Positions 61,559 through 64,000 of a DNA stretch of 64,000 nucleotides are shown here, piece after piece; the stretch's first letter is position 1, and each line of letters begins with the position of its first letter. This DNA comes from Muribaculaceae bacterium (lineage in GTDB: Bacteria; Bacteroidota; Bacteroidia; Bacteroidales; Muribaculaceae), in the NCBI GenBank assembly GCA_017405965.1, contig JAFQZK010000016.1:1-64000 (forward strand). Direction: 5' to 3'. The translations under genes were made by a program, and so were the position numbers. Under the pieces are notes generated by a model, which did no database searches, was not told where the DNA came from, and was given only the letters and a program-made list of their open reading frames with translations.

Positions 61559-62020
61559 ATGAAAAAGACTATCATCATTGCAGCCATCATGCTGCTCATG
61601 GCAGGCACCGTCACACTTGATGCCCGCACCAAGAAAAAAACTACCGCCAAGAAGGCCAGTGCCACTCAGGTCATCTACACCGGCGACATTGCCAACAAGG
61701 TAATCGGCTACAACGGCACCACCCCGCTCAACATCACCGTCAAGAACGGCGTAATCGAGAACATCGAGGTGCTCCCCAACCAGGAATCGCCCAATTACCT
61801 CAAGCGCGCCAAGGATAAGGTGCTGCCGCAGTACATCGGCAAGACCGTCGCCGAGGCCAAGAAACTCAAACCCGACATTGCTACTGGCGCCACCTACACC
61901 AGCGAAGCCCTCATCAAGAACATCCAGATGGGCCTCGACCAGGCAAAATCCACACCCGCCAAGAAGGCTGCGACCAAAAAGAAAGCAACCACCAAGAAGG
62001 GCACCAAGAAACGTCGCTGA
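61559..62020 (+). CDS. Exported FMN-binding domain protein with Lys-rich tail
   Basis: 153 residues. Signal peptide about 1-22. The FMN_bind fold (about 35-127) has the flavinylation-type motif TGATYTS (109-115; consensus S/D-GATxT/S), where FMN is covalently attached to Thr by ApbE-like enzymes. The tail (131-153) is very basic (KKAATKKKATTKKGTKKRR), and a second basic patch (TKKKTTAKK) follows the signal peptide. Probably periplasmic; the electron-transfer partner is unknown. It lies 50 bp downstream of the MurU-like gene and has a strong terminator. Confidence 0.8.
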   Translation: MKKTIIIAAIMLLMAGTVTLDARTKKKTTAKKASATQVIYTGDIANKVIGYNGTTPLNITVKNGVIENIEVLPNQESPNYLKRAKDKVLPQYIGKTVAEAKKLKPDIATGATYTSEALIKNIQMGLDQAKSTPAKKAATKKKATTKKGTKKRR

Positions 62021-62086: not shown

Positions 62087-62113
62087 CCTTGTTGGTTGAC
62101 GCAAGATTCGCTA

Positions 62114-62121
62114 TACCTTTG
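62114..62121 (+). promoter_or_regulatory. -7 box TACCTTTG of the sigma factor operon
   Basis: TACCTTTG fits TAnnTTTG, 28 nt before the GTG start at 62150. Confidence 0.5.
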
Positions 62122-62149
62122 TGTTTAATCTATAAAAGAGCGACATTCA

Positions 62150-62692
62150 GTGACCGAATTGCAGATTGTCAACGGAGTCAAGAACGGGGACCGGAAGGCC
62201 ATGCGCGAGATGTATGACCTGCTGGCTGGAACGGCTATGGCCACAGCCGTGCGTTACCTGGGCAAGTGTGATGACTGCCGCGACGTGCTGCAGGATTGTT
62301 TCTTGAAGGCATTCACCCGCATCGAGGACTTTTCCTATCGCGGTGCCGGTTCCTTGCGGGCATGGATGACCAGGATTGTCGCCAACGAGTCCATCAACCG
62401 GCTTAAACAGCAATCCCACATCACCTTCCTCGATACCGATGATGTGGAATTACCCGATGATGAGCCACCTGATATCGTTCATGTCCCGCCAGAGGAAATC
62501 ACCAGAATGATAGCCTCGCTGCCGACGGGATACCGCATCGTGTTCAACCAGTTTGTATTTGAACACAAGAGCCACAAGGAGATTGCCCAATCGCTGGGTA
62601 TCAAGGAGAACTCCTCGGCATCACAACTGCTGCGAGCCAAGCGACTGCTGGCCAAAATGATTCAACAATATCAACAAAACCACGATGACTGA
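62150..62692 (+). CDS. ECF-type RNA polymerase sigma factor (Das-like)
   Basis: 180 residues, GTG start (no ATG lies between the promoter box and the conserved region). Region 2 (about 20-88) has the DDCRDVLQDCFLKAFTRIEDF core and GSLRAWMTRIVANESINRLK. Region 4 (about 115-175) includes LPTGYRIVFNQFVFEHKSHKEIAQSLGI. It overlaps the next gene by 8 bp. The pairing with a dual-membrane anti-sigma factor matches the Das/Dma systems reported in Bacteroides thetaiotaomicron, where one such pair controls outer-membrane vesiculation. Confidence 0.9.
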   Translation: MTELQIVNGVKNGDRKAMREMYDLLAGTAMATAVRYLGKCDDCRDVLQDCFLKAFTRIEDFSYRGAGSLRAWMTRIVANESINRLKQQSHITFLDTDDVELPDDEPPDIVHVPPEEITRMIASLPTGYRIVFNQFVFEHKSHKEIAQSLGIKENSSASQLLRAKRLLAKMIQQYQQNHDD

Positions 62693-63902
62693 CAACGACT
62701 GGATCAAACAACTGCAATCCAAGATGGACGGACACCAGGAGCCCGTCCCCGATGACCTGTGGCAGGATATCGAGAAGCGGTTGACACAGCAGCAGCCAAC
62801 CACGCGTCCGATGCCCGCTTGGCGACGCTATGCCGCAGCAGCCGCAGTGACGCTGGCAGTCATCGGCACGGGTTGCCTGCTATGGCTCAATAATGATGAC
62901 ACTACAGTCAATCCACCCGTCATCGCCAAGACCAATCCCGAAGCGGACACCCCCTCGCCCGAGACCTTTGACCAAGGAGAAGCAACAGCTCCAGTTCTTG
63001 GCTCACGAGACCCGGCACAACGGCGTCCCCAGACGGCAGTAATCAAAGCAAATCAGACTGCAGCAAGAGCCAGTGACAACATTGCCCAGGCCAGCACCCC
63101 TGCTGCGGTTGCCGATGTTCAGGAATCGGACGACGAGCCCATCAAGCAAGATGCTGAGCAGCCCAGCCAGCCGAAACCCAAAAGCAATGAGAGTCACACC
63201 CGGCCGGCATCCTATCCCCAACCTGCATCCTATCCCCAGCCTGTAGACCAAAAAGATATCAGACCCACCGCAAAGCGAGGGCCCTTGACGCTGGGCTTAT
63301 ATGCGTCTAATAATTTCAAGTCTGAAGGGATGACCAACAACTCCCACGTTTTCGCTTTTGACCCGGTCCTTTTCTATCAACTGTCATCGGGCGTACCCAG
63401 TGACTATACTGAATACATCTTTACTGCTAAGCATCACGCTCCGATGTCATTAGGCTTGAGTGTGCGTGTTCCCATCACAAGCCGTTTTTCTCTCACCAGT
63501 GGATTGGTCTATTCACGGCTCAAGTCGGATTTCACCTCCAAAAGCAGGCATCGTGAGCAGACGCTGCATTACCTGGGCGTGCCCATAGGCGCGACTTACA
63601 CGTTTTGGACCTATCGGCGCCTCAACATCTATGCCATCGGCGGCATGCAGGCCGACTTTAACGTCAAGGCGACCCTTGAGGAGAACTCCAGAGTCAACCC
63701 CATCAGCATCTCCAAAGACCGCGTGCAGTTCTCGGCATTGGCGGGTCCGGGATTGCAGCTTGACCTGGCGAAGGGGTTCGGAATCTACGTTGAGCCCACG
63801 GTTCGTTACTATTTTGACAACGGCAGCGACATTGAGAATTATTTCAAGGAAAAGCCCTGGAACATCAACTTGAATGCCGGCTTACGTCTCACCCTGAAAT
63901 AA
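62685..63902 (+). CDS. Predicted dual-membrane-spanning anti-sigma factor (Dma-like)
   Basis: 405 residues. Residues 1-48 are cytosolic and amphipathic (DNDWIKQLQSKMDGH, PDDLWQDIEKRL), the expected sigma-binding part. Residues 49-69 form an inner-membrane helix (YAAAAAVTLAVIGTGCLLWL). Residues 70-197 are a disordered Pro/Gln/Ser/Glu linker with a short repeat (ASYPQP twice). Residues 199-405 are an outer-membrane beta-barrel domain (GPLTLGLYASNNF, RFSLTSGLVYSRL, GLQLDLAKGFGIYVEPTVRYYF, ending INLNAGLRLTLK). One chain would thus cross both membranes and sense outer-membrane state. It overlaps the sigma gene, so the two are coupled. Confidence 0.85.
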   Translation: MTDNDWIKQLQSKMDGHQEPVPDDLWQDIEKRLTQQQPTTRPMPAWRRYAAAAAVTLAVIGTGCLLWLNNDDTTVNPPVIAKTNPEADTPSPETFDQGEATAPVLGSRDPAQRRPQTAVIKANQTAARASDNIAQASTPAAVADVQESDDEPIKQDAEQPSQPKPKSNESHTRPASYPQPASYPQPVDQKDIRPTAKRGPLTLGLYASNNFKSEGMTNNSHVFAFDPVLFYQLSSGVPSDYTEYIFTAKHHAPMSLGLSVRVPITSRFSLTSGLVYSRLKSDFTSKSRHREQTLHYLGVPIGATYTFWTYRRLNIYAIGGMQADFNVKATLEENSRVNPISISKDRVQFSALAGPGLQLDLAKGFGIYVEPTVRYYFDNGSDIENYFKEKPWNINLNAGLRLTLK

Positions 63903-63961: not shown

Positions 63962-64000
63962 ATGAAGAGTTATCTGGAAATCAAAGTGCCCATCTCCTTC
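63962..64000 (+). CDS. Partial CDS at window edge, possibly ribosomal protein L11 methyltransferase
   Basis: Only 13 codons are visible: MKSYLEIKVPISF. The YLEIxVPI start resembles the N terminus of PrmA proteins, but this is too short to be sure. An alternative frame begins at ATG 63952 and reads MTNYEELSGNQSAHLL, which looks less protein-like. Confidence 0.35.
   Translation, partial: MKSYLEIKVPISF

What the first reader, a model, noticed from the sequence alone, without database searches (positions are those of the whole stretch)
62150..63902. Sigma factor coupled to an anti-sigma factor predicted to span both membranes
The second gene encodes, in one chain, a cytosolic sigma-binding segment, one inner-membrane helix, a disordered linker of about 125 residues and an outer-membrane beta-barrel. 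It overlaps an ECF sigma gene by 8 bp. Known: Das/Dma pairs in Bacteroides thetaiotaomicron have this design and one controls vesiculation. Inference: this pair carries outer-membrane information directly to the polymerase without regulated proteolysis, possibly for vesicle formation or envelope stress.
Basis: partly seen in the sequence, partly recalled or inferred. Interest (0 to 1): 0.75.

Follow-up and report, generated by a model that had tools for sequence, protein, structure and literature searches.

The report
Membrane-spanning anti-sigma pair linked to serpin
A gut bacterium carries a known kind of switch, a protein predicted to reach from the outer membrane to a sigma factor inside the cell, and the switch's likely promoter signature has only two exact copies in the genome: in front of the switch itself and in front of a nearby gene for a protease inhibitor (serpin).

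Summary
In detail: an ECF sigma gene (62150-62692) overlaps by 8 bp a 405-residue protein with a short N-terminal segment, one membrane helix, a 133-residue linker and a barrel-family domain. The design is published as Das/Dma and EcfO/Reo, so the architecture is a known kind; all 80 kept named relatives have an adjacent sigma gene. The new result is the output. GCAAGATT-N13/14-GTTTA precedes das in 17 of 17 close loci (15 exact, 2 with one mismatch) and has two exact matches in the 3.6-Mb genome: before das, and 0.6 kb after dma, before a serpin lipoprotein gene. The 17 loci all carry that serpin. Serpins recur beside Das/Dma elsewhere (8 pairs within 5 kb, 0.22 expected; six label changes on a tree), whereas 28 of 80 named loci have NigD, the published output. 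Most likely: an autoregulated outer-membrane-stress relay whose output is a serpin. 'Without proteolysis' is unsupported: a sister class joins the sigma domain straight to the helix. The barrel fold was not modelled; no expression data exist.

The parts
62101..62127 (+). predicted Das-dependent autoregulatory promoter: GCAAGATT (62101-62108), 14-base spacer, GTTTA (62123-62127)
   Evidence: one match in the window, 0 in 100 shuffles; same element upstream of das in the rumen relatives; one of two exact matches in the genome, reversed-pattern control 0
62150..62692 (+). das: ECF sigma factor, 180 aa, GTG start
   Evidence: Pfam PF04542 and PF08281; GTG start seen in relatives
62685..63902 (+). 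[quoted passage not shown]
62685..62828 (+). N-terminal cytosolic segment (residues 1-48) with conserved W6, P22, W26; presumed sigma-binding
   Evidence: nearly invariant columns in 72 relatives; binding inferred
62832..62888 (+). inner-membrane helix, residues about 50-68, N-in by charge
   Evidence: hydropathy 2.02; charge rule in 69 of 72 members
62889..63287 (+). periplasmic linker, residues 69-201 (133 aa), Pro-rich (15% Pro)
   Evidence: length at least 101 residues in 72 relatives; disorder inferred
63288..63899 (+). C-terminal barrel-family domain, residues 202-405, ending in G-L-R-L-T-L-K
   Evidence: PF13568/PF13505; strand-like alternation p 0.0002; fold not predicted
63962..64000 (+). 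start of a LigT/2'-5' RNA ligase-like gene, cut by the window end (contig 63962-64486). Beyond it on the same contig: second promoter copy 64516-64541 and serpin lipoprotein gene 64569-65840

Best explanation
The pair is a Das/Dma (EcfO/Reo-type) relay. Dma holds the sigma factor with its N-terminal cytosolic segment, has one helix in the inner membrane, a long tether through the periplasm and a barrel in the outer membrane (inferred from sequence). Disturbance of the outer membrane or of barrel assembly changes the barrel or tether and frees the sigma factor (inferred; whether by pull, conformational change or proteolysis is open). The free sigma factor transcribes from GCAAGATT-N13/14-GTTTA promoters (supported by conservation, not by experiment): its own operon, giving positive feedback, and a nearby serpin lipoprotein, giving a protease inhibitor at the cell surface or in the periplasm. 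In other Das/Dma loci the neighbour is often NigD, the published output; here a serpin has taken that role.
For: Architecture. Sigma gene adjacent to the Dma gene in 80 of 80 named loci and in 53 of 54 split loci with complete ends (in L077 it lies downstream; L095 is cut by a contig end). Promoter: 31 exact sites in the 17 rumen loci: 15 before das, 15 before a serpin (14 loci), 1 before another gene. Genome-wide two exact matches, both here, reversed-pattern control 0. Serpin: PF00079 E 3.6e-93, found in 17 of 17 of these loci. Serpin within 5 kb of a Dma gene in 8 of 61 Dma-serpin pairs, 0.22 expected. The serpin label needs 6 changes on the sigma tree, 4 forced by starred branches. In a fused-sigma genus a different promoter (TGCAGTCTTTT or TGCAGTATTTT ... 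CGTATC) again stands before both the sigma gene and the adjacent serpin in 3 of 3 loci. Das and target promoters match better within a locus than across loci (p 5e-5, 36 of 52 pairs usable). Published relatives: das2 up in the dma2 deletion, P. vulgatus sigma gene up 33-fold with BcpT, ecfO-reo top-induced by BcpT and Bd-A.
Against: No experiment on this organism; fold not predicted. The exact-type motif scores above the 99th percentile of shuffles before only 12 of 53 split, 25 of 80 named (including the rumen clade) and 2 of 35 fused sigma genes, so the promoter diverges elsewhere and was matched only loosely. L134 has the exact site before a different gene and none before its serpin, which lies 3.8 kb from dma; L106 and L111 have near matches only. 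Of the other serpin-linked loci, no clear promoter copy was seen before the serpins of L282 and L284. With one mismatch allowed five more sites appear in the genome, two of them before lipoprotein-like ORFs, and the N14 control gives 1, so further targets are possible. A housekeeping-like TACCTTTG lies in the spacer of the window's das promoter. Two other serpin genes of this genome lack the motif. Shared ancestry inflates the pair test and the counts.
Confidence: 0.75

Rival explanations
1. The pair works as Das1/Dma1 in B. thetaiotaomicron and drives vesicle formation; the serpin is a bystander neighbour.
For: Same architecture; dma1 and dma2 deletions raise vesicle output (PMC13088901).
Against: No NigD-like gene was seen in the stretch examined around it (ORFs read by eye); the serpin carries the same promoter core exactly in 14 of 17 loci and serpin linkage recurs in other Das lineages. 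Vesicles and a serpin are not mutually exclusive.
Confidence: 0.25
2. The sigma factor is released by regulated proteolysis of Dma: a protease cuts the long tether when the barrel is not properly placed, then an intramembrane protease cuts the Ala-rich helix.
For: The fused sister class has the sigma domain joined to the helix without an anti-sigma segment, so cutting is the simplest way to free it; the helix starts with a nearly invariant Ala (A53) in an Ala-rich run, which would suit an intramembrane protease (recalled, not tested).
Against: No cleavage site was identified and no protease gene was looked for; nothing here separates this from a pull or conformational mechanism.
Confidence: 0.45
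3. The C-terminal domain is a periplasmic or inner-membrane-associated domain, not an outer-membrane barrel.
For: No structure prediction could be run; the chain ends in Lys rather than an aromatic residue (a terminal aromatic is the classical signal, recalled).
Against: Barrel families hit in 72 of 72 members, strand-like alternation, C-terminal G-x-x-hydrophobic motif in 69 of 72, and a tether not shorter than about 100 residues in two partly overlapping sets.
Confidence: 0.05

Closest known systems
Das1/Dma1 and Das2/Dma2 of Bacteroides thetaiotaomicron (Pardue 2024 PNAS: not held, not seen; Pardue 2026 PMC13088901: abstract, introduction, one results section, discussion, passages and part of the reference list seen)
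   Same: sigma gene beside a protein with N-terminal anti-sigma segment, helix, disordered tether and C-terminal barrel; das2 rises when dma2 is deleted
   Different: published outputs are nigD1 (Das1) or bt_1555-1557 and PUL changes (Das2); here the predicted direct output is a serpin
EcfO/Reo of Phocaeicola vulgatus (PMC9308784 passages and section 13; PMC13114119 passages) and B. fragilis (2013 paper not held)
   Same: same architecture; sigma gene 33-fold up with toxin BcpT; read by its authors as an outer-membrane stress sensor
   Different: regulon there includes nigD genes and goes with longer O-antigen; no serpin is named in the parts I saw
Dma3 of B. thetaiotaomicron (sigma domain at the N-terminus; PMC13088901 passages)
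   Same: same tether and barrel design
   Different: the window pair is split; the fused class is separated by one change on the sigma tree
FecI/FecR/FecA surface signalling (recalled)
   Same: signal from the outer membrane to an ECF sigma factor
   Different: separate proteins with a TonB-dependent receptor; here receptor and anti-sigma factor would be one chain

Membership tests
[quoted passage not shown]
   conserved short segment with W6, P22, W26 in 72 relatives; binding not testable
[quoted passage not shown]
   hydropathy and charge; charge rule in 69 of 72 members
[quoted passage not shown]
   length met (133 aa; at least 101 aa in 72 members); disorder not predicted
[quoted passage not shown]
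   by sequence only: PF13568 above cut-off, 72 of 72 members in a barrel family; fold not predicted
[quoted passage not shown]
   8-bp overlap; 80 of 80 named loci
ECF21 sigma factors | membership of the ECF21 class | not tested
   no ECF21 model met in the libraries used; of the 25 NCBIfam rows shown only the general ECF model TIGR02937 passes its cut-off
EcfO/Reo and Das1/Dma1 regulon | nigD output gene beside the pair | tested here: not met
   serpin beside the pair; 28 of 80 named loci have a NigD-like neighbour (NigD domains confirmed on two). NigD genes elsewhere in this genome were not searched for
Serpins (target gene) | serpin domain with inhibitory-type hinge and lipoprotein signal | tested here: met
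   PF00079 58-421, E 3.6e-93; hinge EVNEDGAKAAAVT and lipobox ATSC (motif rules recalled); inhibition not testable

The most novel reading that the evidence does not exclude
The barrel is a tripwire for proteolytic attack on the cell surface: cutting or loss of the barrel frees the sigma factor, and the cell answers with a surface serpin whose variable reactive loop is tuned to local proteases, including those that activate rival toxins. It would be a one-protein alarm from outside to polymerase with an anti-protease answer.
Probability: 0.15. Interest if true: 0.85.

Novelty: new variant of a known kind. Interest (0 to 1): 0.5.

Why it matters
What Das/Dma systems sense and do is open. A predicted core regulon of the pair itself plus one serpin, conserved in 17 loci, is small enough to test directly. 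The repeated link of serpins to these sigma factors (six label changes on the tree) suggests that some bacterial serpins belong to outer-membrane stress responses, and that NigD and serpin outputs may serve one need.

Tried and rejected
Considered and rejected: a chance barrel hit (72 of 72 members); a das promoter that is only a housekeeping one (TAnnTTTG in 8 of the 17 rumen loci by my reading, while the ECF-type core is exact in 15 and one mismatch off in 2). One-mismatch genome hits (five more: four, one; reversed control 0 and 1): two lie inside ORFs, one is 250 bases from the next ORF, and two stand before lipoprotein-like ORFs (C17:164157, with an altered box, and C38:8566); these two are weak candidates, not claimed. 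Exact matches in 198 genomes: 41, reversed control 17 (8 of them in one genome). By place, 6 lie before das and 2 before the serpins of G000 and G180. Of 29 loci looked at, 4 lie before das, 1 before a NigD-like gene about 2 kb from a Dma gene (L225), and 22 of the other 24 inside ORFs. PDB sequence search gave only chance-level hits. A direct comparison with B. thetaiotaomicron Dma1/Dma2 failed: that genome did not come up by name. In one search the value of 36 for L086 is an artefact of where the helix search began (one search puts its helix at about residue 82, giving about 110); L095, cut by a contig end, was left out. In one search, 16 of 52 pairs were dropped for lack of a TGCA candidate on one side. 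In one search one partial serpin hit of G058 was left out as part of its neighbour. In one search six rows (L279-L284) were added because they carry serpins, L112 and L168 were labelled serpin by hand, and ten fused rows labelled 'other' had only short flanks; the change count is therefore approximate.

Full report
What is there. The window holds an ECF sigma gene at 62150-62692 and, overlapping it by the 8 bases ATGACTGA, a 405-residue ORF at 62685-63902. The sigma protein matches sigma regions 2 and 4. The second protein matches the outer-membrane barrel family PF13568 above its cut-off. In 72 aligned relatives the barrel families hit 72 (PF13505) and 71 (PF13568) members. A helix at about residues 50-68 has more positive net charge on its N-terminal side in 69 of 72 members; its hydropathy is at least 1.6 in 64 of 72; no such window occurs in the barrel region of any member; residues 202-405 show strand-like alternation (p 0.0002), the linker does not. 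No second full-length copy is in this genome; one weak partial hit (E 0.015) was seen.

Known kind. PMC13088901 describes Dma proteins as N-terminal anti-sigma segment, helix, long disordered tether and C-terminal barrel, encoded beside ECF21 sigma genes. EcfO/Reo of Phocaeicola has the same layout and is read as an outer-membrane stress sensor. Matches at E <= 1e-10 occur in 80 of 198 genomes of the same family and, with another query and genomes at least 95% complete, in 93 of 393 of the order. A scan of named genomes gave 234 relatives; the best 80 were kept, among them rumen MAGs, Leyella, Duncaniella, Dysgonomonas and Myroides. The 80 kept all have a sigma gene beside the Dma gene. The window's family code includes a contig of the same length (91,682) as one of Duncaniella muris, so the organism is most likely a Muribaculaceae species (inference).

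Two architectures. Of 90 ORFs examined (89 loci and the window), 54 are split, 35 carry the sigma domain in the same chain, and one (L095) is cut by a contig end. In the 35 the sigma domain runs directly into the helix with no anti-sigma segment (L086 and L074 have shortened sigma parts). The switch needs one change on the sigma tree. A fused sigma must be cut free or act from the membrane, so 'without regulated proteolysis' cannot be assumed for the family. The tether is poorly conserved in sequence but has a floor in length: 111-181 residues in 54 split members, 106-156 in 34 fused members (the 35th, L086, was measured wrongly there and is about 110), and 101-185 in the 72 members of the second set (the sets overlap in part). 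At about 0.36 nm per residue (recalled) 100 residues reach about 36 nm when fully stretched, enough to span a periplasm.

Output. Upstream of das the rumen relatives share (A)TGCAAGATT-N13/14-GTTTA; the window has ACGCAAGATT. In the 17 loci (window, L102-L116, L134) there are 31 exact core sites: 15 before das, 15 before a serpin gene (14 loci, one with two serpins), 1 before another gene. L102 and L114 have one mismatch before das. In L116 the sigma reading frame looks interrupted. In the window's whole genome the exact core GCAAGATT-N13/14-GTTTA occurs twice: contig 62101-62127 before das and 64516-64541 before the serpin; reversed-pattern control 0. With one mismatch allowed there are five more sites, control 0 and 1. 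The serpin (contig 64569-65840) matches PF00079 at 3.6e-93, has a lipoprotein signal and an inhibitory-type hinge, and the loop after the hinge varies among relatives. A LigT-like gene lies between dma and the serpin. A serpin is found in 17 of 17 of these loci, in L134 at 3.8 kb from dma.

The link is not confined to this clade. Of 80 named loci, 21 have a serpin and 28 a NigD-like gene (NigD_N and NigD_C domains confirmed on two); some loci are cut by contig ends, so both are lower bounds. In the 198-genome family set, 23 genomes have both a Dma hit and a serpin hit; 8 of 61 pairs lie within 5 kb against 0.22 expected, in four genera (input). The serpin label needs 6 changes on the sigma tree, 4 forced by starred branches (quick search, weak root, six rows added because they carry serpins). 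The loose pattern TGCA[AG]..TT-N10/18-TTA precedes 17 of 20 serpins, 15 of 28 NigD-like genes, 22 of 71 das genes and 3 of 9 genes of another lipoprotein-type cluster, but 20 of 452 other neighbours and 0 of 79 dma genes. In the fused genus (L279-L281) the element reads TGCAGTCTTTT, or TGCAGTATTTT before two of the three serpins, with CGTATC downstream, and stands before both the fused sigma gene and the serpin. In L283 the serpin is the first gene of a serpin-das-dma operon-like row; in L282 and L284 no clear element was seen before the serpin. Das and target promoters resemble each other more within than across loci (14.19 against 12.61 matches, p 5e-5; without the rumen clade, 20 pairs, 12.95 against 11.40, p below 1e-4; 36 of 52 pairs usable). 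Shared ancestry inflates these p-values.

Limits. The PWM of the rumen motif scores above the 99th percentile of shuffles before 12 of 53 split, 25 of 80 named and 2 of 35 fused sigma genes, so it is not general. L134's serpin has no clear site; L106 and L111 have near matches only. Two other serpins of this genome lack the motif. No expression data exist here.

Mechanism. Shown by sequence: gene layout, domain matches, promoter conservation and linkage. Inferred: sigma binding, membrane placement, outer-membrane stress as signal, release step, serpin as protective output. The signal is taken from P. vulgatus: BcpT raises the sigma gene 33-fold and shares induced genes with bacteroidetocin A, which inhibits BamA (PMC9308784 section 13); ecfO-reo are among the genes most induced by BcpT or Bd-A (PMC13114119 passage; that Bd-A is bacteroidetocin A is my reading). 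BcpT is itself activated by proteolysis (PMC9308784 title and passages), so a serpin could blunt such attack; this is conjecture.

Novelty. The architecture is published. Searches for serpin with ECF sigma and Bacteroid, nigD with serpin, and bacterial serpin with Bacteroid and sigma factor listed nothing whose title or shown abstract describes a serpin output of such a pair; no paper from those lists was opened, the nigD list showed 10 of 18, and most subscription papers, the 2024 Dma paper included, are not held.

Noticed in passing
L054-L101 (35 fused ORFs; also L279:2488-4179): One-chain proteins in which the sigma domain is joined directly to the membrane helix, tether and barrel, without an anti-sigma segment; separated from the split class by a single change on the sigma tree.
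   Followed up: partly
L163, L164 (Myroides): Das/Dma pairs outside Bacteroidales, with a small lipoprotein-like gene beside them that carries the same promoter type.
   Followed up: no
L147, L150, L156, L163, L164, L165, L172: A recurrent small lipoprotein-like protein of about 180-200 aa beside das, family not identified; some have an ATGCA..TT element upstream.
   Followed up: no
L169: A record titled Paenibacillus carries a Das/Dma pair on a contig of the same length (28953) as a contig of the window's family (L026): a mislabelled or mixed MAG.
   Followed up: no
window 61559-62020: FMN-binding-domain protein with a Lys/Thr-rich tail just upstream of das; a like gene in 13 of 80 named loci, all of the rumen group.
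   Followed up: no
L288 (G000:C38:4000-11500): Another ECF sigma gene beside a row of lipoprotein-like genes, one of them preceded by a one-mismatch copy of the das promoter core.
   Followed up: partly
L286:2733-3983 and L287:2799-4067: Two more serpin genes in the same genome, without the promoter element.
   Followed up: partly
L225 (G064:C3): A NigD-like gene with an exact copy of the promoter core, about 2 kb from a Dma gene.
   Followed up: no
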